Shown here one piece after another: positions 12,790-40,227 of a DNA stretch of 40,227 bases. The notes under the pieces were generated by a model that worked only from the letters and a program-made list of their open reading frames with translations, had not been told where the DNA came from and did not search any database. The position numbers were made by a program, and so were the translations under genes. Origin of the DNA: a virus; the IMG/VR virus record IMGVR_UViG_3300045999_001945, positions 1 through 40,227 of that record; one strand, written 5' to 3'. Within the stretch, counting starts at the first letter, position 1, and the number at the start of each line of letters is the position of its first letter.

Positions 12790-13426
12790 CAGTTGTCTTT
12801 CCTGCAACCTTTTTCTTGGGCGATGGCTTTTTCTCTATAACATCAGGTATAGATTGATCCATGAGCGCCTTTTCAATCTTTTCAACATCGGCGTTCATTT
12901 TTTTAATCTTCTTCTCAAGACGAATCTTGACCTCTTCGCCGTCCATCCAGATGTCTTTGTTGTCAAGAATAGACTTGATCTCTTCTGGAGTTAGGAAGTC
13001 ACTGTAAACCTTGTTGACTAGCTTGTCGGACCACTTGCGTTCACTGACGATATGATCGTACATCTCGCCGCCCTTGCCAAATGATCCACCAGAGTAGTTG
13101 TGGAACATAAAGAAACAGTGATCCGAGATTTCAAACATGTCTGCTGCTAGAAAGATCATTGTCGCAGCAGACATACAATAACCTTCAGCAGATGCGCAGA
13201 TTTGTGCTTGCGACTCTTGGATTACACGATTGAATTGGATCGCAGTTGATAGATCACCGCCGGCTGAGTTGATGTGAAGTCGGATCACATCATTCTCTCC
13301 TGCGTTTCGGATGATCTCAAACTGATCAATGTAGTTTTCTGGTGGAAGAATCTCACCACAAAGATAAAGATCGAAGATGTGCCCGATAGGCTTACCCTCA
13401 AACTTGATATTCTTCAAACCTGCCAT
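12782..13426 (-). CDS. clpP: ClpP-like serine protease
   Basis: ClpP/crotonase-fold peptidase. IRLHINSAGGDLSTAIQFNRVI (substrate-cleft strand and helix) leads to the nucleophile region EGYCMSAATMIFLAAD and the histidine segment CFFMFHNYSGGSFG, equivalent to the Ser and His of ClpP. A third-residue Asp is probably in KDIWMDGEEV. The Lys-rich C-terminal 45 residues (KKIKKMNADVEK..SPKKKVAGKTTDV) are extra. It may cleave host or phage proteins or process virion proteins; in T4 the head protease is gp21, which is unrelated. ATG 13426 has a strong AGGAG 8 bases upstream; an ATG at 13453 overlapping the RuvC stop is the alternative. No Clp ATPase is in the window. Confidence 0.88.
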   Translation of the reverse strand: MAGLKNIKFEGKPIGHIFDLYLCGEILPPENYIDQFEIIRNAGENDVIRLHINSAGGDLSTAIQFNRVIQESQAQICASAEGYCMSAATMIFLAADMFEISDHCFFMFHNYSGGSFGKGGEMYDHIVSERKWSDKLVNKVYSDFLTPEEIKSILDNKDIWMDGEEVKIRLEKKIKKMNADVEKIEKALMDQSIPDVIEKKPSPKKKVAGKTTDV

Positions 13427-13449
13427 GGTGTCATCTCCTGATAATCTTG

Positions 13450-14007
13450 TCATTCCACGCTCCTAATTTGTTGATAGCCATACTTGCATATCCAATAGGC
13501 ATCGATAATGTCAGAAGATGGATTCCATTGCTTCTCAGTCATACCGAGTTCAAATTTGATGTCTAGGTTGTTTTCGGCTACAAACGCGGTTTGCATCTTT
13601 TCTTTGTCTGCATTACCTTTGCCCGTAGCGAACTTTTTGATCACAGTTGGAGGCACAGCTTCAAAGTCTACGCCGTACTTCCACAATCTGTACTTTAGAA
13701 TGCCAGTGTTCTCTGCGATGTGGAACACTCTGCCTTTTGATCCCATTGAGTAGCCTTCAATAAAGACTTTCTCAATGCCACGCTCTAGAATTCTCTCTAT
13801 GAAGAAACTTGATATGGAATCAAATCTCATCATATCGTCAGTGTACTCAAAGTATTTGCCGACCATATTCTTGACAATGATATCATACTTCTTTACCTGT
13901 GTCAAGTAATAGGATCGGCAGTTACTAAAGTTCATTTCACCATCTGCATCATCATAGAGACATATGGCTGGAGATGTCATTGAGTAGTCCAGCCCTGCGA
14001 CTTTCAT
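13450..14007 (-). CDS. RuvC-like Holliday junction resolvase
   Basis: RNase H-fold nuclease of the RuvC group. The acidic catalytic residues sit in VAGLDYSMTSPAI (D7), VFIEGYSMG (E, about 81) and a C-terminal SSDIIDAYWICKYG (about 163-176, D in the last helix). PPTVIKKFATGKGNADKEKM (about 119-138) is the typical K-x-F-x-x-G-x-G-x-A-x-K region. It would cut recombination intermediates made by UvsX. T4 uses the unrelated endonuclease VII (gp49), which was not seen here. ATG 14007 has a GGAAGA site and an ATGA overlap with the upstream stop; a TTG at 14022 is less likely. Confidence 0.9.
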   Translation of the reverse strand: MKVAGLDYSMTSPAICLYDDADGEMNFSNCRSYYLTQVKKYDIIVKNMVGKYFEYTDDMMRFDSISSFFIERILERGIEKVFIEGYSMGSKGRVFHIAENTGILKYRLWKYGVDFEAVPPTVIKKFATGKGNADKEKMQTAFVAENNLDIKFELGMTEKQWNPSSDIIDAYWICKYGYQQIRSVE

Positions 14008-15546: not shown

Positions 15547-17361
15547 CTACCCTTCACAAGCCTGACAAACATCATCTGCCATCGCCAATGCTTTCAAGTC
15601 TAACTCCTCAATGACTTTACGTTCAATACTCTTAGACACTTTGTCTGCTTTGCCAATCTTCTCAGAACGGCAGTAGTACAGAGTCTTCAATCCAAGTTTC
15701 CATGCAAGGAAGTGAATCGCATGAAGATACTTGACGTTCACATCTGGTCGGAAGAATAGATTCAATGACTGCGCTTGGTCAATGAACTGCTGTCTATCAG
15801 CCGCATGTTGAATGACCCAGCGTTGATCAATCTCCATGGATGTCTTGAACACATCTCTAGTCCACTCATCCATCCATTCCAGATGCTGTACGGAGCCATC
15901 ATTCGCAATAATTGAAGACCAAATATCAGCATATTTTCCAGAATCCATTCCATCTTTTAGTGACAGATGTTTTCTGATTACTTTATCAAGATATCGATTC
16001 TTATTCAAGTGAGAACCAGAAAGTGTGTCTTGTCTGTAAGCATTTGCGCGGTAAGGTTCAATGCTAGGAGAAGTGTTTCCCATGAGAATGGAAGATGAAG
16101 CGTTGGGAGCGATAGCCATAAGATGACTGAACCTACGACCAGTACCCACAGCATCAAGAGCCTCACCCCTAGCTTTTCCGAGGCGTAGGTTAGCTTCGTC
16201 AAGTTGCTTTCTGATGTGCTTGAACATGTTGATGTTTCTACCAACTGCCATGGGGCTTTCCCATGGAATGTTATTGCGTTGTAGAAATGCATGAAACCCA
16301 AGAGCACCAATGCCAATAGACCGCTCCCTAATAGCAGAGTATTTGGCGCGATGAATGCTATCAGGAGCATTGTCAATGAAATACTGTAGCACGTTATCAA
16401 GCATCTCTGCCATGTCTGAAAGAAATAGTGGATCGTTCTTCCAATCATCATAATACTCCAAGTTCACAGAAGAGAGACAACATACAGCAGTGCGATCTTT
16501 ATCTGTAGGCAGAATGATCTCGCTGCATAGATTGCTTTGCTTGATAGACAAACCCAAGTCTTTTTGGAATTGAGGCATTGCATTGTTGCTAGTGTCGATG
16601 AAGTGAATGTATGGCTCACCAGTCAACATGCGAGTTTCAAGAATGCGCTGCCAAAGATCACGGGCTGACACAACTTCTTTGACTTCTTTTGATGCAGGAT
16701 CAATCAATTCCCAATCATCGTTCGCCAAAGGATCAATCATGCACTTCTCAATGATTCGCATGAAGTCATCTGTGATGTTGATGCCATGATGCAGATTCAA
16801 TGCTCTCATGTTGGGATCGCCCGTAGGCTTTCTCATTTCAAGAAATAGAAGAATATCTGGATGGTTGATATCAAGATAAGCGGCATAAGAGCCACGACGA
16901 GTACGACCTTGACGATATGCGAGGCTCGACGCATCATAAGTCCTAAGGTGAGGCATGATGCCAACGGACTTATCGTCAGCAGCACGAATTCCCAGTCCAA
17001 TTCCAACTCCGCCTCCGAGCATTGAAAGCCAGTTTACCTCAGAAAGAGTTTCCACCAAGCCCTCTGCGCTATCGTGCAGGTATGGCAAGAAACAAGAAAT
17101 AGGAAGCCCACGCTTACTCCTACCAAAAGACAGAATTGGAGTAGAATATGATAGCCAATGCTTGCTGCTGTACTCATACAGTCTTTGAGCGTGTTCTTGA
17201 TTCGTACCAAATGCTTTTGAAACATACGCAAATCTTTCTTGAGGTGATTGTTCTTCTTCTTTCATGTAGGACTCTTTCAACCTCTTGAGCCCAAGTTCAT
17301 CAAACAATGAATCTCTTGTGTAGTCTACTTTGATACTGTGTACCGTGCCATCAGATGTCAT
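15547..17361 (-). CDS. nrdA: Ribonucleotide reductase class I alpha subunit NrdA
   Basis: Catalytic subunit converting NDP to dNDP. The active-site Cys pair is seen as GLPISCFLPY (first Cys) and TAVCCLSSVNL (second), with the N-x-C-x-E signature in KQSNLCSEIILP supplying the thiyl radical Cys. LGGGVGIGLGIRA is the conserved allosteric/loop region. The C-terminus ends in CQACEG, the mobile Cys pair. The N-terminal ATP cone for activity control is absent: 604 aa against about 760 in E. coli, so dATP feedback is probably lost. That is usual in marine phage NrdA. Located just after thyX, so dNTP supply is one unit. Confidence 0.96.
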   Translation of the reverse strand: MTSDGTVHSIKVDYTRDSLFDELGLKRLKESYMKEEEQSPQERFAYVSKAFGTNQEHAQRLYEYSSKHWLSYSTPILSFGRSKRGLPISCFLPYLHDSAEGLVETLSEVNWLSMLGGGVGIGLGIRAADDKSVGIMPHLRTYDASSLAYRQGRTRRGSYAAYLDINHPDILLFLEMRKPTGDPNMRALNLHHGINITDDFMRIIEKCMIDPLANDDWELIDPASKEVKEVVSARDLWQRILETRMLTGEPYIHFIDTSNNAMPQFQKDLGLSIKQSNLCSEIILPTDKDRTAVCCLSSVNLEYYDDWKNDPLFLSDMAEMLDNVLQYFIDNAPDSIHRAKYSAIRERSIGIGALGFHAFLQRNNIPWESPMAVGRNINMFKHIRKQLDEANLRLGKARGEALDAVGTGRRFSHLMAIAPNASSSILMGNTSPSIEPYRANAYRQDTLSGSHLNKNRYLDKVIRKHLSLKDGMDSGKYADIWSSIIANDGSVQHLEWMDEWTRDVFKTSMEIDQRWVIQHAADRQQFIDQAQSLNLFFRPDVNVKYLHAIHFLAWKLGLKTLYYCRSEKIGKADKVSKSIERKVIEELDLKALAMADDVCQACEG

Positions 17362-17383
17362 GTGCCATTTGCCTCTATTGTTG

Positions 17384-18043
17384 TTATTCTGTAATAAACT
17401 CTTTGATCATTGGAAAAACAGGTTCAATTGCTTTAGCGCAAGCAATGGCTACTTCTCTATGTTCTTTTTGTGTCCCATTTGCTGACCGGAGTTGTATGTA
17501 GTGTACCCAGGACCTCAATGTTCCATTCATGAAAAGTCGTGACTGAGTGTTACCTTCCGGCAGAACTGCTCTGGCTTGTTCTTTTGCAATGCCATGTTGA
17601 ATTGCCCATTCATATGCATCTTTTGATGTCTGGATCAAATACTGTTGCTTTTCAATCCATCTCTTCTGTAAAAGCGCATCATCTGTATCAATACTGTTCT
17701 GTCGATTCTTCGTGTCTTGAAGTCTAGCATCCCGGACTTCAAAACTCAATCCCTTTGTTGGGTCAGCATACCGCTGACTAAATTCTTGGAAAGAAAAAGA
17801 ACGATGTCGTAGAATCTGTCGCGCAATGTCGCGAGTTGTGTCAATCTCTAGACACACACTGACCATTTCTAGAGGGCTCCAATGCTGATGTTTGATCAAA
17901 TACCGAACCAGCTTTTCAGCCGTTTCGCTGTTGTTTTGATTCTGAGGATTAGAGACTCTTGCTGCGTATGCAATTTGCTCTAACAGATTCATCTTGCCCA
18001 TATCAAAACTTGATTGGGAATAATTTACTAGCTTCACTTTCAT
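17384..18043 (-). CDS. thyX: FAD-dependent thymidylate synthase ThyX
   Basis: Makes dTMP from dUMP using methylene-THF, NADPH and FAD. The ThyX signature RHRSFSFQEFSQRY (about 82-95, R-H-R-x4-S-x4-S-x-R type) is present. The C-terminal PEGNTQSRLFMNGTLRSWVHYIQLRS segment carries the conserved substrate-binding Arg residues and the Ser/Asn region. Length (219 aa) is normal. The ATG at 18043 overlaps the primase stop (ATGA) and has GGAGAA upstream; the ATG at 18055 would remove that spacing. T4 itself uses the unrelated ThyA (td), so this is the alternative enzyme. Confidence 0.95.
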   Translation of the reverse strand: MKVKLVNYSQSSFDMGKMNLLEQIAYAARVSNPQNQNNSETAEKLVRYLIKHQHWSPLEMVSVCLEIDTTRDIARQILRHRSFSFQEFSQRYADPTKGLSFEVRDARLQDTKNRQNSIDTDDALLQKRWIEKQQYLIQTSKDAYEWAIQHGIAKEQARAVLPEGNTQSRLFMNGTLRSWVHYIQLRSANGTQKEHREVAIACAKAIEPVFPMIKEFITE

Positions 18044-19068
18044 GCAATTCTCCATGAGTTAAATTTCAATAATGCTGTAGGACCAGAAAATGTGTTTTTA
18101 TTTATGACATCGATCACTTCGTCCACGCTCAGATTCGACACTCGGATCATATCGTTGATATCTTTTTCCTTCATATCATCTGGCCAGATGCAGACAGAAA
18201 ATCCTTCTTCAACCGCACGTTTCATCTCTCGCATCACTTCTTTGTTGCGAGGTTCATTGTCATAGATGAGTACCAATTTATCTTTCGGCAAATAGTCACC
18301 AACAGACTTTAGATTTGCGTTGCCAGATGCGACTGCGTTGGGAAGAAACAGACTGTCGATAGGACCCTCTGTCACAAGAATTGTCTTGCTCTTGTCTACG
18401 GTGTTCAATCCAAAGATCATCGGAGCATCTTCAATGATACGCATTGTCAGATAACGAATTTTATGATCTGTAATTGCACGACCAGATAGCCCAACGAGAT
18501 TATCTTCTTCATCAAAGAACGGAAGAATCAATCGCGGTTCATTGCCAACAATCTTCTCTTCGTATCCAGGAGCAAACTCCCTCATCTTCGTAGAGTCATC
18601 AACAAAGTATAGCCGATCAAACTTGTCTTTTGGTATCTTCCTATCTGTAACATACTTGACAGCAGCATGATCTTTTGGCAGTCTCTCAAGAGGCACAACA
18701 ATACCTCTCATTGCATTATCTTTTCTAGAAGACTCAAACACGACTGGCTTGAAAACGAAGTTGTGTTCTTTGTGTGCTTTGCGCCCAGTCTCGCCGGACT
18801 TGTATCGCTCAAGACAATACTCTTTATATAGATTTGGATCAACCGAACGAATAAGACTTCCTAGTGTCATGCTTGCTTGACAATTGTGGCACTTATAGAA
18901 CATGCCGCCTTTTTGTGCAAAAGTATAACCTCTAGCCTTGTTCTTGTTTGTTTGACTGTCGCCGCAAATTGGGCAGCGGAAGTTGTATAGATAGTCACCC
19001 TTGCGAGTGAACTTTTCTAATCGTGTTGATAAAGTGCCGATGTACTTGTGATCAAGCCACATGCTCAT
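18040..19068 (-). CDS. 61: DNA primase, T4 gp61-like
   Basis: Makes RNA primers for lagging-strand synthesis on the gp41 helicase. The N-terminal zinc ribbon (CPICG near 32-36 and CHNC near 60-63) binds template. The central region contains GLSGRAITDHKIRYLT, and the Toprim-like core shows VTEGPIDSLFLPNAVASG (about 222-239) and the metal-binding LIYDNEPRNKEV (about 256-267). 342 aa matches T4 gp61. Its promoter (19108-19136) is a full TTGACA-17-TATAAT, and the leader contains a 9-bp inverted repeat. Primase opens the block primase-thyX-nrdA-nrdB. Confidence 0.93.
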   Translation of the reverse strand: MSMWLDHKYIGTLSTRLEKFTRKGDYLYNFRCPICGDSQTNKNKARGYTFAQKGGMFYKCHNCQASMTLGSLIRSVDPNLYKEYCLERYKSGETGRKAHKEHNFVFKPVVFESSRKDNAMRGIVVPLERLPKDHAAVKYVTDRKIPKDKFDRLYFVDDSTKMREFAPGYEEKIVGNEPRLILPFFDEEDNLVGLSGRAITDHKIRYLTMRIIEDAPMIFGLNTVDKSKTILVTEGPIDSLFLPNAVASGNANLKSVGDYLPKDKLVLIYDNEPRNKEVMREMKRAVEEGFSVCIWPDDMKEKDINDMIRVSNLSVDEVIDVINKNTFSGPTALLKFNSWRIA

Positions 19069-25088: not shown

Positions 25089-27383
25089 TTACCATGCTGC
25101 GCAAGACCAGTATTTTGCTTTCCACTTTGGTCCTGGTTCGTCGCAATTATGTCTTGCACGGAAACTCTTTCTTCTCTCTGGATTGTCTTTTTTGATTTCC
25201 ATATTAGGATCACCGAAACGAACAATCACAACTTTATCGTTTGGTCCCATTGTGTACACCGCAGACTTCTTTGGTCCATCTGGTGTGTAGAATGGCTTGT
25301 TTAGCGTAACGTCTTTGCCCTGATACTGCGCTTCGTGAAGAACTAGATCCCAATCTACTTCTTCAACGATTTCATCTTGACACTCATCGCAACACGCTTC
25401 TTCGCTGTACAACTTGAATGCTCTCTGAAGATTTGCACTGTTGATTGCTTCTAGTGCTTTATCTGCTGAGTATCTAGCCATCGTGATTTCTTGGCTCTGC
25501 CCGGGTGTTGCTCTAGCATAGGCTAATCTAGCTGCATCTGTGCCGTACTCAAGAACACCCTCTGCAAACTGTGAGAACTTATTGTTTCTCTGAACAGACT
25601 CCCATAAATCAGCATCATCGTGCTTGATTGTAGCACCGCCACTGACGAATGAATTGACTCTAGCAAATGCCCATTGTTGTGGAGTCATTGATGCAGATTC
25701 ATCATATGATTGAAGACCCCTCAAGTATACTTCTCGGATAGTTGAATAGTCAATTCCACTCTTTTCGGATTTCTTGTGAAGTGCGTTTAGCGTTTCTACG
25801 ATATGTTCTAGATCAGACTCAAATCCCTCTGTTTCCATTCCATACATTGCATCTTCAGCGTCTGCGTAATCATCTTCGCTTTCGTCATCATCTTCTTCTT
25901 CATCATCATCATCAGAGAACTCAAGATAATCTTTGACGCTTGCAATGTAATCTGTGGCGAGACTGACTTTAGATTGAACCCATGCTTCTGGCTCTTCTTC
26001 CATATTACTGATTGTCACTAGCAAACTTCTCGCATCTTCAATCATTGCGCGAAGTTCAATCTGGATCATCTCTAGACCATCAATCTCAGTTTCGTCTTCT
26101 TCCTCTTCTTCTTGCTCCATCAGATACTGTTCAAACTGAGGACCAACCAACTTGACACCCGTGACTTTGTGAATCAACTTCCATGCTTCTCTATCTTTAC
26201 CTGCACCAATCAACGCTTTCATCTGTTTCTTTTGTTCATCTGTTGCCTTCTGGAAGAAAGCAAACATTTCCATTGCACCGATGTTTCCTTGATACGCCAG
26301 TTCATTGATTTGAGTTTCTTCTTTGACGGATGAACCAACGACATGACGCAGTGTTTCTTTTTGTCTGACAGTTGGCATTAGTCGTGCGGCCAGTTTCTTG
26401 ATCACAGGCGCAAGTCTCTGCATTCTTGTGTCTACTGAAATCTTTTCACCAGTGGAAAGATTGGAATACTGTTTGCCTCCAGCCATGTGCATTCTCAAGA
26501 AGTTTCTTGCCATCTTCAGAGATCGTTGTTTCAAACGCTCAGGATTTGCATATCTTCTCATTGCAAGGGTTCTTGCTCTTTGCACTCTCTTCTGGAGACG
26601 CTTGAATCTTGTCGCTCTCATCATACGCTGAGAGTAGTTGAGAACTGCTTCTTTCACATCTTCCTTATCGTCTTCTTCAGACTCTTCATCATCTTCTTTT
26701 CTTTTCTTTCCCAAGACGATTCTGTGTGCAGGATACTTCTTACCACTCTTGCTTACTTTGTAGTCTGCTGTAGTCTGTTCGCCCTCTTCCAGTTCAACGC
26801 TTTCGTCCAACTTCATGCCCTTTCTCACTGCGTTATAGAGTTCTTTTGCGTCTGAGTCAGACAACTTAGATGGAACACCCTGTTTGAAGTTCGCAAAGTC
26901 TTCATCTGCTGCAAACTTGCGCATCTTTGATCCAGACATACCCTCTACGCCCTCTGCGTCTGGATCTCTTTCTCCGGCGGATACAATTTCAATGGAATCA
27001 AATGTGAAGTCTTTGCCGTTGTATTTCTCAAGCAATGTTCTGAATTCTGGAACACGATCACTGCCAACAACAACCACAAGATTGGAATACTTACCAGTCA
27101 ACTCTTTAGCAACTTCAATGATAGTTCGTGCTGCTGAGTTCTGCACCATTGGACCAAAAGCCTTCTTTGCGAATTTGACTTTAGCGTCAAACGACAGAGG
27201 ATCTTTTTTGGGATTAGTGGAATGTGAGAGATATAACTTTGCGTCTGCGCTACGCGATGCAGCTTCTGACTTGAGTTTGTTTGCGAGTTTTTCGTGCCCG
27301 TTTGTCATCGGATTCATTCTTCCGAATGACACCACAACGGTAGACTTTTTCGCTTCAGTGAGATGTGTTTTGAATTTTTTCAT
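25089..27383 (-). CDS. Nucleotidyltransferase-domain virion-type protein, 764 aa
   Basis: Residues 1-12 (MKKFKTHLTEAK) look like a capsid-targeting tag. Residues 16-190 are a cytidylyltransferase/NMN adenylyltransferase-like Rossmann domain: VVVSFGRMNPMTNGHEKL carries the (H/T)xGH site and GMSGSKMRKFA the SxxxxR-type site, with VVVVGSDRVPEF between. That domain would transfer a nucleotide, for example making NAD or activating a small substrate. The remaining 570 residues are helical with an acidic run (DDDDEEEDDDESEDDY, about 497-512) and a C-terminal ERRKSFRARHNCDEPG..YWSCAAW motif that I associate with structural phage proteins. A late promoter (27444) precedes it. It may be packaged and injected. 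Confidence 0.82.
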   Translation of the reverse strand: MKKFKTHLTEAKKSTVVVSFGRMNPMTNGHEKLANKLKSEAASRSADAKLYLSHSTNPKKDPLSFDAKVKFAKKAFGPMVQNSAARTIIEVAKELTGKYSNLVVVVGSDRVPEFRTLLEKYNGKDFTFDSIEIVSAGERDPDAEGVEGMSGSKMRKFAADEDFANFKQGVPSKLSDSDAKELYNAVRKGMKLDESVELEEGEQTTADYKVSKSGKKYPAHRIVLGKKRKEDDEESEEDDKEDVKEAVLNYSQRMMRATRFKRLQKRVQRARTLAMRRYANPERLKQRSLKMARNFLRMHMAGGKQYSNLSTGEKISVDTRMQRLAPVIKKLAARLMPTVRQKETLRHVVGSSVKEETQINELAYQGNIGAMEMFAFFQKATDEQKKQMKALIGAGKDREAWKLIHKVTGVKLVGPQFEQYLMEQEEEEEDETEIDGLEMIQIELRAMIEDARSLLVTISNMEEEPEAWVQSKVSLATDYIASVKDYLEFSDDDDEEEDDDESEDDYADAEDAMYGMETEGFESDLEHIVETLNALHKKSEKSGIDYSTIREVYLRGLQSYDESASMTPQQWAFARVNSFVSGGATIKHDDADLWESVQRNNKFSQFAEGVLEYGTDAARLAYARATPGQSQEITMARYSADKALEAINSANLQRAFKLYSEEACCDECQDEIVEEVDWDLVLHEAQYQGKDVTLNKPFYTPDGPKKSAVYTMGPNDKVVIVRFGDPNMEIKKDNPERRKSFRARHNCDEPGPKWKAKYWSCAAW

Positions 27384-28560: not shown

Positions 28561-29862
28561 TTATCTAGATATCTCTTCCCAATCCATAGAACCTAGACAT
28601 TGTACATTGTTCACGGATGCAGCGAGTGCTAGTGTAATGGGTTCTGGAGTACCAGTCAATCCATTACGTTGCAATTGAAACTTGAACAATGCTTCTTTCA
28701 GAACATCAATTGTCTGTGATGATTGGTTCGTGATACCAACATATCCCTGAGCCATAACTTGACCACCTGATATGTCTGTTGCAGATAGATCATACTCAAC
28801 AGAACCATCTGATGGGCTCCATGACGGAGAGTTCAATGTTCCGCCTCTAATAACTCTCCATGCTATACTTGTGGGATTTGAGTTTATTCCAAGAATAGAT
28901 AACGCAGTAAGGATTGCAATTCCGTCTAGATTAGCAGCTTTCAACTGAAGAGATACAACTGGATAGTACGTACCCGCTGTCGCCAATGACTTTGGTGTTT
29001 GGACTGGTGTGCCAACTGCCCTCTGATCACCACGAAGTTCATATCCACCTTCAGAGATTACAGTAGAACAGATTTGCTTTAGTGTTGATCCACCAGAGAC
29101 TGTTCCTGTGTTCTTTATCTCATAACGCACCGGCAATGATGCTGTTGTGATGTATGTTGAAGACAGTATGTTTGCATGATGGAATGAGTGGCAGTGAATC
29201 AACTGCCCGTTGATGACGAATCCGCATCTCACCGATCCAACTCCTAGCCACTCAATATCAGCCCAGAAAATCTGCGCTTGTGCGAGATTCAATGTCAACT
29301 TAGATGGTCCTGTGCCGTCTAGTGGATCTAGATTCCAGTTTGCTTGTGTAACTGGCGTGTCAACTACTGCACCACTGACAATCGAACGTTCAACGAAACT
29401 TACAGTGTTTCCTGATTGCTCTAGGAATACTCCGTTGTTTGCGCCGAAATAACCGATTCTTTGCCTTAGATTTGTCTTGGCTGGAGACATTACAAACGTG
29501 TTCATTGAGAGCAAAGACTTGCCTGGTTGATATGACATCACCTTTGTTGTTTCACGAACAATCTCTGCATTTGCAGTGCCGTTTGTCAATGTGAGATTGA
29601 TAAGCCCTTCGTTAGGAGAAAACACAATCGTGGTGTTTGCTGTGTTTGCCGTTGCCCACAATCCGTTGTCTTTGTATCTGTGGGAAGAATCGAACAGAGT
29701 TAGTGGAGATGATGTTCTGCCTCTACCAAATGCATCAACTGCAACACCAGTTGGATTAGCAGGACCGACTCTGTTACCATACTGGTCAGCCAGCATGACT
29801 ACTTCAAAAAGTGTCTTTGCTTGATCTAAGTATGTGTGTGTATTTTTATTAAATTGTGCCAT
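28561..29862 (-). CDS. Virion structural protein, 433 aa
   Basis: A long beta-rich protein, poor in Lys and Cys, rich in Ser, Thr, Asn and Gly. The start MAQFNKNTHTYLDQAKTLFEVVMLADQYGN leads to FGRGRTSSPLTLFDSSHRYKDN, typical of a large virion protein of marine T4-like phages. Its position between putative head genes suggests a head or neck decoration or a fibre-like protein; there are no catalytic motifs. It abuts the next gene (ATG right after the stop of the ligase-like gene), so both come from the transcript starting at 32265. Confidence 0.78.
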   Translation of the reverse strand: MAQFNKNTHTYLDQAKTLFEVVMLADQYGNRVGPANPTGVAVDAFGRGRTSSPLTLFDSSHRYKDNGLWATANTANTTIVFSPNEGLINLTLTNGTANAEIVRETTKVMSYQPGKSLLSMNTFVMSPAKTNLRQRIGYFGANNGVFLEQSGNTVSFVERSIVSGAVVDTPVTQANWNLDPLDGTGPSKLTLNLAQAQIFWADIEWLGVGSVRCGFVINGQLIHCHSFHHANILSSTYITTASLPVRYEIKNTGTVSGGSTLKQICSTVISEGGYELRGDQRAVGTPVQTPKSLATAGTYYPVVSLQLKAANLDGIAILTALSILGINSNPTSIAWRVIRGGTLNSPSWSPSDGSVEYDLSATDISGGQVMAQGYVGITNQSSQTIDVLKEALFKFQLQRNGLTGTPEPITLALAASVNNVQCLGSMDWEEISR

Positions 29863-32238: not shown

Positions 32239-32266
32239 GAAAAAAGCCTGTCGTGTTGACAGGCTA
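32239..32266 (-). terminator. Intrinsic terminator after the 123-aa gene
   Basis: Minus strand AGCCTGTC, 5-base loop, GACAGGCT followed by TTTTTTC. The late promoter TATAAATA (32265-32272) overlaps its upstream edge, so a late start lies just upstream of or within the terminator hairpin. Confidence 0.85.
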
Positions 32267-32272
32267 TTTATA
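32265..32272 (-). promoter_or_regulatory. T4-type late promoter TATAAATA
   Basis: Exact consensus on the minus strand, about 40 bases before the 182-aa gene. It heads the late block that includes the head-type, structural and lysis genes. Confidence 0.72.
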
Positions 32273-33835: not shown

Positions 33836-33924
33836 AAAGAACGGTCCAGGAGCGATTTTTTCGTCCAGGTTGATATCTGAGTACCCACCCGCCAGAAAAA
33901 TCGCCCAAAACCGCTCCTGGACCG
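33832..33924 (-). terminator. Large terminator hairpin downstream of the helicase gene
   Basis: On the minus strand ACGGTCCAGGA (left outer arm) pairs with TCCTGGACCGT, and GCGATTTTT with AAAAATCGC further in, giving 11 + 9 bp with a 10-base bulge, followed by a T-rich run (TTCTTTTTTG). It ends the helicase transcript just before the promoter cassette copy 2. Confidence 0.82.
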
Positions 33925-33928
33925 TCTC

Positions 33929-35344
33929 CTATGTCACTTTGAAGCCCTCAAACTTGCGCTCCGCGCGCATTCCCTTACCAAATCCTGACTTGTCAAAGAC
34001 TGGAGTACTGTCTTCAACTTGACCACTATCATGGATATGGTTCTGTGCTGACTGTTCCACATCGTAAAGTTTCATCTTTGCCTTATCCACGCCGATGACA
34101 AATCTCTTGTTTGTGTCTGGATTAGAGTACCGATTCTTCAATTGCTTGACCATGATCTGATTCAAGTCTGCGAGTTCATCAGACGACATTAGAGCAAACA
34201 TGAAGTCCGCTGTCGCGGGTAAACCAAAAGACTCTGATGTGTCTGTAAGACTAACGTCAGTGTTATCGTAACCACTTCTCGTTGTCTGTGTGGCTGAGAC
34301 AACAGGAACTTTCATCTCAACTGCAAGCCCGCGAAGTTCTTCTGCAATTGCTTTGATGAATGTATACGAATTGACAGAGTTACCTTGCTTCATGCGAGAG
34401 GATGCGCAGATGTTCAGGTAGTCAATGTAGATGATATCTGGAATGAACTGTCGCTTCAACTTCAACTCATTCAGCAGATGCTTGAAGTGAGTCACGTTAG
34501 CTGATGCAGTAGGATATTCCTTGATGATCAACTTACCCATTGTCTTCTTGCGCAACTTCTCAATCTTGCTGACGTAGACATCCTTGGGCATAGAGACAAG
34601 TTTGTCTAGGTCAGTGTTCAGGAGATTCGCATCAATACGTTCAGCAATACGCTCTTCTGCCATCTCAAGTGTGATGTAGAGGACGTTCTTGCCCATCGTC
34701 AGATTGCCTGCTGCGCAGTGACACATGAACATTGACTTGCCGACGCCAGTGCCAGCCAGAATGATGTTCAGTGTCTTGTTGGGCAGCCCACCCTTTGTGA
34801 TCTTGTTGAAGTATTCAAGATCAAATGGAATGCGCTGTTCTACTTTATGATAGAACTCATAGCGAGACTCAGCATCATCTAGGAAATCATGCCCGACATG
34901 ATTGTCAAACGAGACTGACAACGCATCTGCAAGGATACTCGGTATGGCGCCTTTGTCAAGTTTTGATTCTCCTGTCTTGCTATCCAGTATCTGGATGCTC
35001 TGCATAATGCCATTGTAGATGGCTTTCTCTTGACAGAATTTTTCTGTAGAATCAACAAGCCATTCCGTGATCTTCATGTCACATTCAGTTTCCTTGATCT
35101 CATCAAGCAACTGTGATGTCTTCTTGTAAGTAGATTCCACGAGATTAGGCTTGTCTTCAAGTTCAACCCTGAGTGCCGATACAGTAGGTAGGCTGTTGTA
35201 TTGAGTAACATATCGATGAACTTCTTCAAAGATGACTTTCTCATGTTGTTCAGAGAAGTAATCTGTCTTAAGAAAGGGAAGAGTCTTTCGGGCATAATTC
35301 TCGTTGTCAATCAGATGCTTGAGAATCTGTGTTTCTATTTTCAT
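33929..35344 (-). CDS. 41: Replicative DNA helicase, T4 gp41-like (DnaB family)
   Basis: Hexameric 5-prime to 3-prime helicase of the replisome. The N-terminal helical domain (1-150) is followed by the RecA-like core: IILAGTGVGKSMF (Walker A, about 196-208), YITLEMAEERIAERID (about 226-241), IYIDYLNICASS (Walker B, about 302-313), VVSATQTTRSG (Q-loop motif, about 346-356) and FVIGVDKAKMKLYD near the C-terminus. At 471 aa the length matches T4 gp41. ATG 35344 is chosen; an in-frame ATG at 35371 is possible. The first 38 bases overlap the preceding gene. Gp41 genes in metagenomes can carry split inteins; this one is intact. Confidence 0.94.
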   Translation of the reverse strand: MKIETQILKHLIDNENYARKTLPFLKTDYFSEQHEKVIFEEVHRYVTQYNSLPTVSALRVELEDKPNLVESTYKKTSQLLDEIKETECDMKITEWLVDSTEKFCQEKAIYNGIMQSIQILDSKTGESKLDKGAIPSILADALSVSFDNHVGHDFLDDAESRYEFYHKVEQRIPFDLEYFNKITKGGLPNKTLNIILAGTGVGKSMFMCHCAAGNLTMGKNVLYITLEMAEERIAERIDANLLNTDLDKLVSMPKDVYVSKIEKLRKKTMGKLIIKEYPTASANVTHFKHLLNELKLKRQFIPDIIYIDYLNICASSRMKQGNSVNSYTFIKAIAEELRGLAVEMKVPVVSATQTTRSGYDNTDVSLTDTSESFGLPATADFMFALMSSDELADLNQIMVKQLKNRYSNPDTNKRFVIGVDKAKMKLYDVEQSAQNHIHDSGQVEDSTPVFDKSGFGKGMRAERKFEGFKVT

Positions 35345-35642
35345 TGTTGTGTCTTTCCTGTGCTGCTTCAAGACTGTGTAGAAGAACTGAGTTTAGCACA
35401 TTACCTACAACACTTTCAAATTTTTCTTTGTTTTCGTCATCAACTTTACCTTCTCGCACTGTGTAATCAAAAGAGATTGAATATGTTCCATCTGGATTCT
35501 CCTCGTCACCCATGTTGATTGTGCCGTATGTGTATTCAATACCAGCAAACTCACCCGACAACAATCTGACTCCAAATAAATCGTTTTCTTCTTTGTATGT
35601 AAATTTTGAGTCAGTAATTTCGTAGTCTTCATTCATCTCCAT
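35307..35642 (-). CDS. Conserved small phage protein after UvsX, 111 aa
   Basis: A small acidic beta-rich protein: [36 protein letters not shown] (about 6-41) forms a beta-sheet pattern, followed by [33 protein letters not shown] (about 54-86). I recall similar proteins beside UvsX in T4-like phages, without known function. The ATG at 35642 has AGGAG 7 bases upstream; the frame extends further up to 35714 but inside the UvsX C-terminal gene. It overlaps both neighbours, so translation is coupled to UvsX-C and gp41. Confidence 0.75.
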
Positions 35643-36147
35643 TTTCAGTCTCCTCATTTGTAGAACTTGCTTCACCTTGCCCATACAAGAACTCTTTCTT
35701 GCATGCTGCATCAATCTTGTCTAGCACTTCCTTAGTGAAATACTTCTCAGGCTCTTCGTTGATGTTCTTGCCGAAGACCTTACTGCCATCGGGCAATTCA
35801 TATCGTGTGGAGACTTTCTTGATGATCTCATACTTCTCTGCGATCTCAAGCAAACCGTAGTAGCGATCCAAGCCAGTGCTGTACGTCAATCGGATCTCAA
35901 CTGAAGCATTCTCTTTGGTGAATCGGCTCTTCTGGAGTTTAGCCTTGATGATGTTGCCAACAACTTCAGTACCATCTTTGTCTTTCTTCTTGCTGAGATA
36001 TACAATGGTAGATGCGGTGTACTTGAGACCGGAGTTGTGTGTGATGACGCCGTTTTCAAGAATGTAGTTCTCATACTCATCGACGCTGATATCGTACACT
36101 TCAGATTTACCTGCATTCGTGATAGATTTGATCTTCATAGTTTTCAT
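35629..36147 (-). CDS. uvsX: Fractured UvsX, C-terminal part preceded by a C-intein
   Basis: Residues 1-38 are a C-intein: [17 protein letters not shown] (block F) ending in VITHN, with Ser as first extein residue. Residues 39-172 are the C-terminal third of a RecA-like recombinase: [21 protein letters not shown] continues the L2 loop of the N-terminal piece, and [11 protein letters not shown] follows. Trans-splicing with the N-terminal piece (36921-37841) would give a 353-aa UvsX, normal for such phages. The ATG overlaps the endonuclease stop (ATGA) and has AAGGA upstream. So the C-half can be made from the endonuclease late transcript as well as from the upstream early promoter. Confidence 0.93.
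36034..36147 (-). other. C-intein half (38 aa)
   Basis: From the start Met to the terminal Asn of VITHN; the next codon is Ser. The penultimate His and the final Asn of the splicing block are present. Confidence 0.93.
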
Positions 36148-36872
36148 GATGTTGTTCCTTTTATTTTGATGATCGAAACGATTCCGTACTTACTCAATAG
36201 GTGCTTATTTTCATCTTTACATAGCTTTGCGCCCAACTCTCCGCTTTTCCCTAGGTGCGTTCCTAGGTGCTTATACTGCTCAAACTCCAATACGCTACCG
36301 TTATCAAATGTGACTCTAATCGGTATTGATCTGTGCTTCGAAAGTTTTGCTTTCGTGGTTTCTGTGTGAGTTTTTCCGTAGAATGGGTTTTTTGCACCAG
36401 TAATGCCTTTTGATATTGCATTCTTCCAAGACTGTTTCTCTTTTTCTGTCATGTTATAGTAGCATGGTTTTCCGTACATTGGATTTTTGTCTCCTGCAAT
36501 CAATTTACCCTTTCCGTAAAATCCATTGTTTACGCCTGATATGTGATGCTTGGCAATTTTTTTAGCCAACTCAAATTCTCTCGCAGAAATCTTACGCCGC
36601 CTCGCGCCGCCATTAGACGCGCTCATTGTTATTAGCGCATACGACATGCTTCTCTTATACGATGCGATCTCTACCATTTTGACTAGAAGCATGTGACATA
36701 TAAAGTGTTCTCTGGCAGTAAGGCTGACAAGATTTTCTTTGTTATTGCGACCACCCAAAGATTTTGGCACAATATGATGTCGCTCATAGTATTCTTCGTC
36801 CGAACGTTCTCTAGTTTTGGCAGATTCTATAATTGACATGTACCATTTGGTGTATTTGTTATCTATAAACAT
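36144..36872 (-). CDS. HNH homing endonuclease with NUMOD3 repeats, between the UvsX halves
   Basis: An N-terminal HNH nuclease: [34 protein letters not shown] (about 27-62) carries the His-His, Asn and second His positions. The middle and C-terminal parts have NUMOD3-type DNA-binding modules ([24 protein letters not shown]). It would cut an uninterrupted uvsX allele and allow the cassette to copy itself. It lies exactly between the split intein genes and has its own TATAAATA late promoter (36902-36909). AAGGA precedes the ATG. It is not fused to the intein; the C-half is translated from an ATGA overlap. The known split-gene endonucleases are Vsr-like, so an HNH here is a variant. Confidence 0.9.
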
Positions 36873-36901
36873 GCAGTTCCTTTTCGGTGTTGCTACATGT
36901 T

Positions 36902-36909
36902 TATTTATA
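36902..36909 (-). promoter_or_regulatory. T4-type late promoter TATAAATA for the HNH endonuclease
   Basis: Exact consensus, 30 bases before the endonuclease ATG, right after the stop of the UvsX N-terminal piece. T4 homing endonuclease genes also often carry late promoters. It would co-express UvsX-C late. Confidence 0.72.
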
Positions 36910-36920
36910 GTTTTTATACT

Positions 36921-37841
36921 TTAGACCATATCCACCGAGTCGTTAGTCATGAGGTCCTTTGCTTCGATCCACACGCCATTGACAAGGAACTTATGCTCTT
37001 TAGTGCATTTCACTTTAGTGCCATCTTCAAACTCAATTTCAAGAATGTCTTTGTCGTTGAAGAAATGGGTATCGAGAACTTGTCTCCAAACGCCTTCCTT
37101 TGTCATAACTTCATCGTCGATTGAAACGTTTTCAATGTTTCTCAAGCCATATTTTGTAATAATCTTCGTTCCTGCAACTAGACAGCCGCCAGACATTTCC
37201 TTAGTTGGAATGTATGCACCAACAACATCGTAAACGTGATTAGTGACAAGAAGGGGAACGCCGATCTTGGCTAGCTTCAGATTCAGAACACGGAACGTAG
37301 CCTTCAGAATCTGAGACTTGGTCATGTCCTTAGTCTCTTTGCCTTCTGAAGTATCTTCCATCTCTTTCGTTGAAGACAACTGACCCATAGAGTCAAGCAC
37401 CATCATCATTGGTTGACGATCAGATTCTTTCTGGGCTGTGTATGCGTCAATGATCTTCAGTGCAGTGTGCCTGAACTTTTGAATTGTGTCTGGCTCAGAG
37501 ATGACAACTCGCTTAGGGTCAATACCCTTAGACTCCATCATCTGCTTAGTGACAGCAGCCTCAGTGTCAAAGTAGATCACACCGCCTTTAGGATTGTCGT
37601 CCAAGAATTGCTTGACAACACCTAAGACAAAGAATGTCTTGCCTGTTGCAGACTCGCCAGCGAATGCTGTTACTTTGTTATTGGGTACACCACCGTAGAT
37701 GCTGCCACTAAGCAAAGCATTAAGAGCATACGACCCAGTATCGATACAACCGCTAAACTCAGCGGATGCTCCGCCATCTGCAAGAATTTTAGTGTCTTCA
37801 TCTTTCAACTGTTCCACTAGATTAGAAAAGAAATTGCTCAT
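36921..37841 (-). CDS. uvsX: Fractured UvsX, N-terminal part followed by an N-intein
   Basis: UvsX is the phage RecA: it forms filaments on ssDNA and drives strand exchange. Residues 1-219 hold Walker A (AGESATGKTFF, about 61-71), MMMVLDSMGQL (Walker B, about 139-149) and LLVTNHVYDVVG (about 196-207), up to SGG in loop L2. From residue 220 the sequence CLVAGTKIITKYG starts an N-intein, with CTKEHKF as block B (TxxH-type), ending in a stop 87 residues on. There is no C-terminal third: it is encoded separately at 35629-36147. ATG 37841 has GGAG 9 bases upstream. Promoter 37871-37899 is 30 bases before it. Confidence 0.94.
   Translation of the reverse strand: MSNFFSNLVEQLKDEDTKILADGGASAEFSGCIDTGSYALNALLSGSIYGGVPNNKVTAFAGESATGKTFFVLGVVKQFLDDNPKGGVIYFDTEAAVTKQMMESKGIDPKRVVISEPDTIQKFRHTALKIIDAYTAQKESDRQPMMMVLDSMGQLSSTKEMEDTSEGKETKDMTKSQILKATFRVLNLKLAKIGVPLLVTNHVYDVVGAYIPTKEMSGGCLVAGTKIITKYGLRNIENVSIDDEVMTKEGVWRQVLDTHFFNDKDILEIEFEDGTKVKCTKEHKFLVNGVWIEAKDLMTNDSVDMV
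36924..37184 (-). other. N-intein half (87 aa)
   Basis: Starts with the catalytic Cys after SGG and ends at the stop of the gene. Size matches known split inteins such as gp41-1 (about 88 + 37 aa). Block A (CLVAGTKI) and block B (G-T-K-V-K-C-T-K-E-H) are intact. Confidence 0.93.
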
Positions 37842-37870
37842 AGAATAAACTCCATAATTTATGATCACTG

Positions 37871-37899
37871 ATTATACACCATACCAAACTCAAAGTCAA
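37871..37899 (-). promoter_or_regulatory. Sigma-70 promoter for uvsX
   Basis: TTGACT, 17 bases, TATAAT on the minus strand. One mismatch to consensus. It lies 30 bases before the UvsX N-terminal start codon. Confidence 0.82.
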
Positions 37900-37902
37900 T
37901 TA

Positions 37903-38763
37903 TTACATGCTGTCGTGATCTTTGTGATATAGTTTTGTTGCGTTTACTATTTCATCTTTGTTTAGTGCGATGGGGTCAACTGTCGTCAGATCAATTCTCA
38001 TAGGAGTGCCATCCGACAATTTTTGAAGAGAATAGTTGGCTGCGATTAGTAGCAGAACTGCCATCGGATCAAAAACAAACACGATGATGATGATCATCCA
38101 TACAACAGACTTCTCTAAGAGTTCAGTGCTTGTATCTCCATAGATGAATGATGCGATGTACTTAATAGGACCAACTTCAGCCTCAATTTTCCGAATCGTC
38201 GCGGCTATTGGAGCCCTTTCTTCAGCAAGACTAGCAATCGTCTTCTGTTCGGCTTCAATCTCTTGAATGAGTCTAGTGCGCTCTTTTGTCTGACTACGGC
38301 GGATCTGTACTGCATTCGAGGCACCTTGTTCCGTTGTGCTTCTTGCCATAACTTGATCCACAGCCTCATCCAGCTGTTTGAGATTCTTGCGATTCGCATC
38401 AATGTTCTCCTTAGAGAGTTTTATCTTCTCATCAATGATTTCAACTTTAGCCACAACATCACCCGTGATTGCACCCTGTTCGCTATGTGCTTTTGACAAG
38501 TATCCGAAGATGCCGAGCGAAGTGATCATCATGAGAATAATCACGGCTACAGTGAAGTAGTATTTCAGAATTTTGGGTGCATTCTTCCAGTTTCTATACA
38601 GCCACGATGCAGTAACCAATTTAGTGACTTCTAGTGCACCGCCCATGATTGCAATTGATACTGGTGATGCGGCGAAGATAGCAATCAATCCCACTACAGA
38701 ATAGAATGCAGAAACACTAGAGAGTAGTAATGCAGTGCCGAAAAGAAGAATTACAAATGGCAT
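37903..38763 (-). CDS. Membrane protein with central coiled coil, 286 aa
   Basis: Four hydrophobic segments (about residues 1-20, 22-42, 65-88 and 218-240) with a long charged coiled-coil region between the third and fourth (about 95-200, KVEIIDEKIKLSKENIDANRKNLKQ..). The layout is that of the large conserved membrane/coiled-coil protein that follows the polymerase-linked gene in several T4-like marine phages, with no known function. It may act at the inner membrane during replication or host takeover. The ATG at 38763 overlaps the stop of the previous gene, with GAGG 8 bases upstream. Confidence 0.78.
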   Translation of the reverse strand: MPFVILLFGTALLLSSVSAFYSVVGLIAIFAASPVSIAIMGGALEVTKLVTASWLYRNWKNAPKILKYYFTVAVIILMMITSLGIFGYLSKAHSEQGAITGDVVAKVEIIDEKIKLSKENIDANRKNLKQLDEAVDQVMARSTTEQGASNAVQIRRSQTKERTRLIQEIEAEQKTIASLAEERAPIAATIRKIEAEVGPIKYIASFIYGDTSTELLEKSVVWMIIIIVFVFDPMAVLLLIAANYSLQKLSDGTPMRIDLTTVDPIALNKDEIVNATKLYHKDHDSM

Positions 38764-38764
38764 G

Positions 38765-39166
38765 TCACGCACCTCTTGTTATGGCGATGATCTTATCAAT
38801 CTGCTCTTGAATCTTTTCTCTACGATTGGGCCAGTAGATATACTCTTTTTCTGAATTCTTCATCAGATTCACAAGAAGAGGAACAATCATTTTTTCAAGT
38901 TCAACTAACTTGGCTTTTGTCTGAGTTTGAAGTTGAATGCGCTCAGACTCAAGCCCAAGTTTACCTTCATTGTATAGTTGAAGAATTGTATCTACTTTTT
39001 GTTCAAGGCGACTTAAGGCTTCACCTGAAGATGACACAACTTCGCGAATGACTTTAGTCTCTAGAGTAGTCTCATCTACTACCTGCTTTACTTCAGATTC
39101 ATCAATTGCGCTAAATCCAAAGTCTTCTCCTTGACGAATTGTTAGATACTCTGTTGGTATTGGCAT
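38765..39166 (-). CDS. Conserved T4-like phage protein, 133 aa
   Basis: A helical coiled-coil-type protein (EALSRLEQKVDTILQLYNEGKLGLESERIQLQ, about 49-80) ending in KEYIYWPNRREKIQEQIDKI, a signature I recognise from a family that sits between DNA polymerase and UvsX in marine T4-like phages. Function unknown. The ATG overlaps the polymerase stop (TAATG), so the two are coupled. Confidence 0.8.
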   Translation of the reverse strand: MPIPTEYLTIRQGEDFGFSAIDESEVKQVVDETTLETKVIREVVSSSGEALSRLEQKVDTILQLYNEGKLGLESERIQLQTQTKAKLVELEKMIVPLLVNLMKNSEKEYIYWPNRREKIQEQIDKIIAITRGA

Positions 39167-40227
39167 TACTGAAAGAATCCCATTAGGTTACTTTTCTTCT
39201 CTGCTGACCAACCAAACTTCTCAACAATGATCTGAAGTGGCTCAAGATAAGACTTCTCAAACTGAAGATCGTAGTCTATGTACTTCTCAAAATCAAATTC
39301 TTTAGGCAGAACGTTTGGAACTGAAAGCACATTCTCCTGCATTGGATTAGGTGTCTTCATGTAGCAGAACTTTATCTTCTCTCCGTCTTTGATCAACTGA
39401 TACTTCTTAGTCAGATTCTTTTTGGTCAACAGATGGTTGTACATGATGGCACCACGAACGTGAATCGGTGTACCTTTCTCATACAACTGAGAAGAACTCT
39501 TGTATTTAGTTAGGTCAGAGATGCCTCGAGGAAAGGCTACATCTTCAAACTTCATCTTTCTGAACTCCTGACGGAACTGATCATTGAACTGCTGAAACTC
39601 ACCTTCTGTGCCAGTCATGATCAACTTGAATGCAGCCTCAAACTTGTCGCGACACACCCTAGGAGTGGAAGACTTCACAGATTCAATACCCATCATCTTC
39701 AACTTCGGCTCTGCATATCGAACACCTTCGTTATCCCACACATTCAGAATGTATCGCTTCTTTGCAGTCCAGATGCCAGTGTCTGCAATAGACTCTCGCT
39801 TCATCTGCATCTTCTGATCAAACGCATTCATGTAGTCAGCCAGCTGCTGATATGACTTGTCAATAAACGGTTGAATCTTCTGCTCACACACTCTGTCCAG
39901 AAAGTCTACAATCTTCTCTTTAGTCTCTTTAGGAAGACTAGAGTCACCGTACACTTTCTTGACAAGAGGACCAAAGTGAACGTAGATTGAATCTGTATCT
40001 GATGCGATGATGTAGTCAACACCATCTGTTTTGAGTAGATTGTTCAGATATTCATTCATCTTTTGTTCAATCCAGCGAATGGACAACTGCCCAGACAGTG
40101 TGATTGCTTCAGCTTGACGAATGTCGTAGAAACGGAAGTATTGATTGCCAAGAGCACCATAAGCAGAATTCAACTGCACCTTCTTTGCCATCTGAAGATT
40201 CTTGTACTTTGAGATGCGCTTCTCATC
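39166..40227 (-). CDS. 43: DNA polymerase, family B, T4 gp43-like (C-terminal part; 5-prime end beyond window)
   Basis: The phage replicative polymerase. The window holds its palm and thumb: AKKVQLNSAYGALGNQYF (motif B, first part) and ASDTDSIYVHFG (motif C with the catalytic Asp pair DTDS). The C-terminus has a conserved basic region and ends LMGFFQ. The reading frame runs on through 12 sense codons to the edge of the window (40227), so the exonuclease domain and start lie outside. No insertion is seen at motif C, a known intein or intron site. Confidence 0.95.
   Translation of the reverse strand, partial: DEKRISKYKNLQMAKKVQLNSAYGALGNQYFRFYDIRQAEAITLSGQLSIRWIEQKMNEYLNNLLKTDGVDYIIASDTDSIYVHFGPLVKKVYGDSSLPKETKEKIVDFLDRVCEQKIQPFIDKSYQQLADYMNAFDQKMQMKRESIADTGIWTAKKRYILNVWDNEGVRYAEPKLKMMGIESVKSSTPRVCRDKFEAAFKLIMTGTEGEFQQFNDQFRQEFRKMKFEDVAFPRGISDLTKYKSSSQLYEKGTPIHVRGAIMYNHLLTKKNLTKKYQLIKDGEKIKFCYMKTPNPMQENVLSVPNVLPKEFDFEKYIDYDLQFEKSYLEPLQIIVEKFGWSAEKKSNLMGFFQ

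What the first reader, a model, noticed from the sequence alone, without database searches (positions are those of the whole stretch)
35629..37841. Fractured uvsX: two genes joined by a split intein, with an HNH homing endonuclease between
Seen: the N-piece of a RecA/UvsX recombinase stops inside an 87-aa N-intein (starts CLVAGTKI, after SGG) and the C-piece starts with a 38-aa C-intein ending VITHN-S. The exteins join exactly in the L2 DNA-binding loop (SGG / SGLKYTAS) to make a 353-aa UvsX. Known: fractured genes with natural split inteins were first described in environmental phage DNA, with a free-standing endonuclease in between. Inference: UvsX is active only after trans-splicing. The endonuclease is HNH with NUMOD3 modules rather than the Vsr-like type usual at such loci, which may be a new combination.
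Basis: partly seen in the sequence, partly recalled or inferred. Interest (0 to 1): 0.95.

Follow-up and report, generated by a model that had tools for sequence, protein, structure and literature searches.

The report
Phage recombinase gene split by intein
A phage DNA-repair gene (uvsX) is cut into two genes by a selfish DNA-cutting gene, and a self-splicing protein tag (a split intein) is predicted to stitch the two halves back together; this kind of arrangement is known, but here it proves to be a widespread mobile cassette, also present in laboratory-type E. coli phages, whose natural variants show how such splits arise and can be undone.

Summary
On the minus strand, 37841-36921 encodes the UvsX N-half (219 aa) plus an 87-aa N-intein; 36872-36144 an HNH/NUMOD3 endonuclease; 36147-35629 a 38-aa C-intein plus the UvsX C-half (134 aa). 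Exteins join to a 353-aa UvsX immediately after the universally conserved Gly-Gly of the L2 DNA-binding region. All class-1 splicing residues are present. Intein-free alleles 95-96% identical in the N-half exist (L002, L004), so the insert is an exact, removable element.

It is a known kind of system (fractured gene + split intein + free-standing homing endonuclease), not a unique one. I found about 80 distinct relatives, including cultured T4-like phages (Escherichia phage ELT1 on K-12). The 'new combination' with HNH is not new: MobE-like HNH is the commonest endonuclease here; GIY-YIG and Vsr/MTES_1575-like types also occur.

The parts
37185..37841 (-). UvsX N-extein, residues 1-219, start ATG at 37841, ends ...TKEMSGG
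   Evidence: Pfam RecA 9e-12; 96% identical to intein-free UvsX of L002 over residues 1-220
36921..37184 (-). N-intein, 87 aa (CLVAGTKI...DSVDMV) plus stop: Cys1, block B T-K-E-H
   Evidence: Pfam Intein_splicing 3.5e-6; PDB gp41-1 / Npu DnaE matches; invariant Cys1 and block-B His in alignment A7
36902..36909 (-). T4-type late promoter motif TATAAATA in the N-stop/HNH-start gap
   Evidence: one of only three such motifs on this strand and none on the other; exact motif in 21 of 53 related endonuclease leaders against 1.3% of background windows
36865..36904 (-). predicted RNA hairpin: 5' arm 36904-36893, 3' arm 36876-36865 covering the HNH start codon; late transcripts would lack most of the 5' arm
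   Evidence: MFE -15.2 kcal/mol; family test over 41 leaders
36144..36872 (-). HNH homing endonuclease with NUMOD3, MobE-like (phrog_655)
   Evidence: Pfam NUMOD3 2e-9, HNH 9e-5; phrog_655 homing endonuclease 5e-42; H32, H33, N47, H56, H60 invariant in an alignment of 19
36144..36147 (-). ATGA overlap of HNH stop and C-piece start codon (same overlap in L003 and L084)
36156..36160 (-). AAGGA ribosome-binding site of the C-piece inside the 3' end of HNH
   Evidence: sequence; C-piece start region predicted accessible, P(unpaired) 0.63
36034..36147 (-). C-intein, 38 aa (MKTMKIKS...[11 protein letters not shown]), ends His-Asn
   Evidence: Pfam Intein_splicing positions 121-155, 1.8e-7; invariant HN in alignment A6
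35629..36033 (-). UvsX C-extein, 134 aa from SGLKYTAS (+1 Ser) plus stop
   Evidence: 95% identical to intein-free UvsX of L002

Best explanation
This is a mobile fractured-gene cassette in the recombinase gene uvsX of a T4-like phage. The two halves of UvsX are made separately, each fused to one half of a naturally split class-1 intein; the halves associate and splice in trans, giving a scarless 353-aa UvsX (inferred; not shown by experiment). The HNH/NUMOD3 endonuclease between them is predicted to cut or nick uvsX alleles that lack the element near the SGG|SGL codons, so that recombination copies the whole N-intein + endonuclease + C-intein block into them (mobility as a unit shown by comparison; cutting inferred). 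The endonuclease is probably held back in early and middle transcripts by a hairpin over its start and made late from its own TATAAATA promoter, while the C-half of UvsX is translated from its own ribosome-binding site (motifs shown; timing inferred from T4).
For: Anatomy and splicing motifs. Intein-free alleles with exact junctions. About 80 distinct related loci, nearly all in uvsX. The related contiguous intein of L217 folds like gp41-1 (pLDDT 88; TM 0.91 by target length, rmsd 1.7 A). The elements travel as a unit: Mantel rho 0.50-0.65 between N-intein, HNH and C-intein and 0.74 between the two exteins, against 0.20-0.33 between element and host gene; element 1060/1060 bp identical in L287/L288 with flanks 84% and 76%, 98.4% against 83% in L139/L140, 99.6% against about 90-94% in L133/L143; synonymous divergence near 0 in the element against 0.3-1.4 in exteins for these pairs. 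Purifying selection: dN/dS mostly 0.05-0.2 in N-intein and HNH. Late promoter in 21/53 leaders against 1.3% of windows; start regions less accessible than in shuffled leaders, 0.29 against 0.49, Wilcoxon p 5e-8 in 41 leaders; the same logic is established for T4 I-TevI and described for segB and Aeh1 mobE (PMC2988022).
Against: No splicing, cleavage or expression data. The HNH model is of low confidence and its only sensible PDB match, I-HmuI, is weak (E 0.15). In the window itself the leader hairpin effect is modest: 0.44 unpaired, no lower than the uvsX start itself at 0.35. The hairpin test counts related leaders as independent. No close intein-bearing relative of this exact allele was found (best N-intein about 70%), so selection on this copy is inferred from the family.
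Confidence: 0.93

Rival explanations
1. The halves of UvsX assemble without splicing, as in the genes-in-pieces NrdA of phage Aeh1; the intein halves are inert remnants.
For: Non-covalent assembly of endonuclease-split phage enzymes is documented (PMC2988022).
Against: Cys1, block-B His, His-Asn and +1 Ser/Thr are conserved across highly divergent loci with low dN/dS; inert remnants would decay. The break lies inside the RecA core next to the DNA-binding loop.
Confidence: 0.04
2. The endonuclease sits in a self-splicing RNA intron, so the mRNA rather than the protein is spliced.
For: HNH genes are common in phage group I introns (own knowledge; PMC2988022, gives I-TevIII and I-HmuI as cases).
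Against: No Rfam family matches 33900-39200 even at E<=1; the coding sequence on both sides continues as intein halves with their own stop and start.
Confidence: 0.01
3. Broken gene or assembly artefact.
For: The window is a 40-kb metagenomic contig.
Against: Same arrangement in many independent contigs and cultured genomes; all three ORFs intact.
Confidence: 0.01
4. Trans-splicing is a regulatory switch that delays UvsX activity, so the split is adaptive for the phage rather than only a tolerated parasite.
For: Splits without an endonuclease persist (L240, L292, L306, L313, L321), which a pure parasite view explains less directly.
Against: Most close uvsX relatives lack the element; contiguous re-fused alleles exist; no expression data.
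Confidence: 0.1

Closest known systems
Fractured genes with split inteins and free-standing endonucleases (Dassa et al. 2009, NAR, gkp095; not held in the library, content recalled from memory)
   Same: DNA replication or repair gene broken in two by a split intein at the endonuclease position, free-standing homing endonuclease between, in phage DNA. [quoted passage not shown]
   Different: Target is uvsX; endonuclease is MobE-like HNH. Whether uvsX was among the eight enzyme types of 2009 could not be checked.
gp41-1 split intein (PDB 6QAZ), in the phage helicase gene next door
   Same: Similar N/C sizes (about 88/37 aa), class-1 residues, fold; best PDB sequence match of the contiguous uvsX intein profile (E 4e-18). 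In L271 a gp41-1 copy sits downstream of a fractured uvsX (identified as gp41-1 from memory of its sequence).
   Different: Different host gene and insertion site, sequence diverged; gp41-1 in L271 and L370 is paired with a GIY-YIG-like endonuclease.
Fractured uvsX of cultured T4-like phages (Escherichia phage ELT1 MZ892903, Proteus Pm5461, Yersinia TG1, Shewanella Thanatos-1, Vibrio EniLVp02)
   Same: uvsX broken at the same codon by a split intein with a homing endonuclease between.
   Different: +1 residue Thr, GIY-YIG-like endonucleases, more distant UvsX; annotated only as two recombination/repair proteins (in VmeM-32 as 'hypothetical protein', with a HintC note).
T4 MobE / phrog_655 HNH homing endonucleases; Aeh1 mobE
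   Same: HNH + NUMOD3 architecture (30% identity to T6 MobE); late promoter with start-sequestering hairpin.
   Different: MobE sits between nrdA and nrdB or inside nrdA without an intein (PMC2988022).

Membership tests
Fractured gene (split intein + free-standing endonuclease) | Conserved enzyme gene broken into two ORFs, each carrying one half of an intein | tested here: met
Fractured gene (split intein + free-standing endonuclease) | Free-standing endonuclease gene between the halves | tested here: met
   HNH/NUMOD3 ORF 36144-36872
Fractured gene (split intein + free-standing endonuclease) | Trans-splicing restores the enzyme | not testable with these tools
   needs co-expression
Class 1 intein (HINT fold) | Cys/Ser1, block-B TxxH, terminal His-Asn, Ser/Thr/Cys +1 | tested here: met
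   C1, T-K-E-H, H37-N38, S+1
Class 1 intein (HINT fold) | HINT fold | tested here: met
   tested on the contiguous relative L217, not on the window halves: pLDDT 88, Foldseek E 4e-10 to gp41-1; Pfam Intein_splicing hits of the window halves are below Pfam's gathering score
HNH homing endonuclease, MobE type | HNH catalytic residues and NUMOD DNA-binding motifs | tested here: met
HNH homing endonuclease, MobE type | Fold similar to I-HmuI | tested here: inconclusive
   best match 1u3e at E 0.15, low-confidence model
HNH homing endonuclease, MobE type | Site-specific cleavage of element-free alleles | not testable with these tools
   needs enzyme assay; element-free alleles exist (L002, L004)
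UvsX/RecA recombinase | RecA core with Walker A and L2 Gly-Gly, full length after splicing | tested here: met
   L002 homologue matches phage UvsX 9gbg at 1e-140 and RecA
Group I intron | Intron RNA structure around the endonuclease | tested here: not met
   no Rfam match at E<=1

The most novel reading that the evidence does not exclude
Splitting of an intein by a homing endonuclease is reversible in nature: in L269/L270 the element of L264-L268/L145 has lost its HNH by a 661-bp deletion that fuses N- and C-intein back into one contiguous mini-intein, leaving a short piece of endonuclease DNA as linker. uvsX thus holds a full natural cycle (empty, split + endonuclease, split + decayed endonuclease, re-fused).
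Probability: 0.75. Interest if true: 0.7.

Novelty: new member of a known kind. Interest (0 to 1): 0.6.

Why it matters
UvsX is the recombinase on which T4-type homing is known to depend (own knowledge), so the parasite has broken the gene whose product it needs to spread and must mend it at protein level. The family gives natural alleles of one gene that are empty, split with an endonuclease, split without one, and contiguous, some nearly identical in sequence and some in phages that grow on E. coli K-12. That makes open questions about how split inteins arise, whether they revert, and whether they cost the host directly testable. The uvsX inteins are also a large and, in the open literature searched, undescribed set of natural split inteins related to the widely used gp41-1.

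Tried and rejected
Group I intron: no Rfam hit. The claim that HNH + split intein is a new combination: rejected by survey. An apparent match of the N-piece to cyanophage UvsX over 97% looks like a spurious extension of intein over extein (identity falls from 59% to 44%); I did not open those records. I suspected a broken nrdA at 15547-18055, but 17384-18055 is a thymidylate synthase (Thy1). Fold search of the HNH model was uninformative beyond a weak I-HmuI match. Dassa 2009, Carvajal-Vallejos 2012 and Frischkorn 2000 are not in the library; no held paper contains both 'split intein' and 'uvsX', and the nine with 'intein' and 'uvsX' gave no sign of describing this, from titles and abstracts plus a look inside three of them. 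dN/dS for the window against its nearest intein relatives is saturated.

Full report
What is there. The N-piece (36921-37841) carries 219 residues of UvsX and an 87-aa N-intein; the middle ORF (36144-36872) is an HNH/NUMOD3 protein; the C-piece (35629-36147) carries a 38-aa C-intein and 134 residues of UvsX. Pfam supports each assignment, though the two intein halves score below Pfam's whole-protein cut-off, as half-domains would. [quoted passage not shown] Class-1 splicing residues are complete: Cys1, T-K-E-H, His-Asn, +1 Ser.

Where the break lies. Uninterrupted uvsX alleles 96/95% (L002) and 95/87% (L004) identical in N/C part join SGG directly to SGL. In the alignment with RecA the break falls after the Gly-Gly of ...TTGG|NALKF; these two glycines, E. 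coli 211 and 212, are reported as the only ones of the DNA-interacting positions examined that are fully conserved across RecA, RadA/Rad51 and UvsX (PMC2663765). The element therefore targets one of the least changeable stretches of the gene.

How common it is. Scans of IMG/VR with profiles of the intein halves and the endonuclease, followed by classification of ORFs, gave 88 distinct N-intein stretches, nearly all in uvsX. Most are split with a same-strand endonuclease. Among 61 distinct loci from the two intein-only scans, 34 have the MobE-like HNH, 9 another same-strand ORF, 9 are split without an endonuclease, 6 are contiguous, and 3 have an opposite-strand ORF; the scan profiles were built partly from HNH-bearing loci, which favours that class. 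Other same-site endonucleases look GIY-YIG-like (L302, L303) or Vsr/MTES_1575-like (L310, L311); the GIY-YIG label rests partly on motif reading. A second fracture site, about ten residues upstream (VVG|SYVP), is used in L005, L027/L028, L257, L269 and L320; there the endonuclease lies on the opposite strand and the inteins group apart. L257, L269/L270 and L317 have both sites occupied.

Cultured phages. The same break occurs in T4-like isolates: Escherichia phage ELT1 (Tequatrovirus, host K-12 MG1655), Proteus Pm5461, Yersinia TG1, Shewanella Thanatos-1, Vibrio EniLVp02 and VmeM-32, mostly annotated as two recombination proteins with a homing endonuclease between. Escherichia phage HY03 and several others match the N-intein but were not opened.

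Mobility. In pairs of phages the element is far more alike than the gene around it: L287/L288 identical over 1060 bp with flanks 84% and 76%; L139/L140 98.4% against 83%. Synonymous divergence changes at the intein boundaries. Across 31 loci the identities of N-intein, HNH and C-intein correlate with each other (rho 0.50-0.65) much more than with the exteins (0.20-0.33). The window's intein is nearer to L222 (N-intein 63%, C-intein 68%, HNH 61%) than to L003 (49%, 60%, 54%), although its uvsX N-half is only 49% identical to L222 and 75% to L003. This is what homing of the whole block predicts; endonuclease cutting itself is inferred.

Expression control. TATAAATA, the T4 late promoter motif, lies at 36902-36909 between the N-stop and the HNH start, one of three on that strand. 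The exact motif is in 21 of 53 related leaders against 1.3% of background windows. Leaders fold so that the start region is less accessible than in shuffled leaders (0.29 against 0.49, p 5e-8, 41 leaders, not independent) and truncation after the promoter frees it (0.62), though a shorter RNA is freer in any case. This is the arrangement established for T4 I-TevI (PMC2988022). In the window the hairpin covers the start codon, but the computed effect is modest. The C-piece has its own AAGGA site, so UvsX need not depend on endonuclease translation.

Life cycle. L292 and L282 keep only C-terminal zinc-finger-like remnants of an endonuclease, and L316 a shortened HNH-like ORF of 85 aa. In L313 the N-stop and C-start overlap with nothing between. 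L269 and L270 are contiguous at site b; compared with L266 the N-side is 99.7% identical over 301 nt and the C-intein side 120/120 nt identical, separated by a 661-bp deletion. The retained linker DNA encodes part of the HNH's RWHGTNCK finger in L145, so the contiguous form most likely derives from the split one. On the intein tree contiguous forms need four changes by parsimony, three forced by well-supported branches, and several other contiguous inteins (L217, L253, L257, L301) keep a methionine near the place where split C-pieces start. Direction is inferred, strongly only for L269.

Conclusion. A well-supported new member of the fractured-gene class. The window alone adds a new allele; the survey shows a mobile family with two sites, several endonuclease types, contiguous and re-fused alleles, and laboratory-tractable hosts.

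Noticed in passing
L269/L270 around 5281; L264-L268, L145: A split intein re-fused to a contiguous one by a 661-bp deletion of the HNH gene, leaving endonuclease DNA as linker.
   Followed up: yes
L271 478-1651 and 3509-5008: Two neighbouring replication genes both fractured: uvsX (HNH) and gp41 helicase carrying a gp41-1-like copy with a GIY-YIG-like endonuclease. L189 has the same double arrangement with other variants, L239 too as far as the contig reaches; L253 has a contiguous uvsX intein beside a fractured gp41.
   Followed up: partly
L370 6406-8365: gp41-1-type split intein in the helicase, with a GIY-YIG-like ORF and a further 154-aa ORF between the halves.
   Followed up: partly
L005 6001-8123, L028 2215-4347, L257, L269, L320: Second uvsX fracture site (VxG|S) whose endonuclease is on the opposite strand in all cases that have one. 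It aligns with RecA VMFG|NPE, near the M. leprae RecA intein site as I recall it (not checked).
   Followed up: partly
L379 (Salicola phage SCTP-2) 1903-3873: RecA-like protein with two contiguous inteins, one in the P-loop (DSG|C...HN|SGKS) and one at the GG|S site; annotated hypothetical.
   Followed up: no
L235 1456-3087: Contiguous uvsX intein with an extra stretch of roughly 60-70 residues after the block-B region, absent from the near-identical L217 gene.
   Followed up: no
L202 1231-4555: Ribonucleotide reductase split by an intein, with a 324-aa NUMOD3 ORF between the halves.
   Followed up: no
window 12782-13453(-): ClpP-like protease gene between replication genes (Pfam CLP_protease 3e-9, phrog_1827 ATP-dependent protease 2e-60).
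   Followed up: no
window 25089-27383(-): 764-aa protein with an N-terminal cytidyltransferase-like region (phrog_3041) and further unknown domains, in a run of large genes including virion structural phrog_1645 at 28561-29862.
   Followed up: no
window 32265-32272(-): Second exact TATAAATA late-promoter motif, directly followed by a GCCTGTC...GACAGGC inverted repeat and a T run (terminator-like).
   Followed up: no
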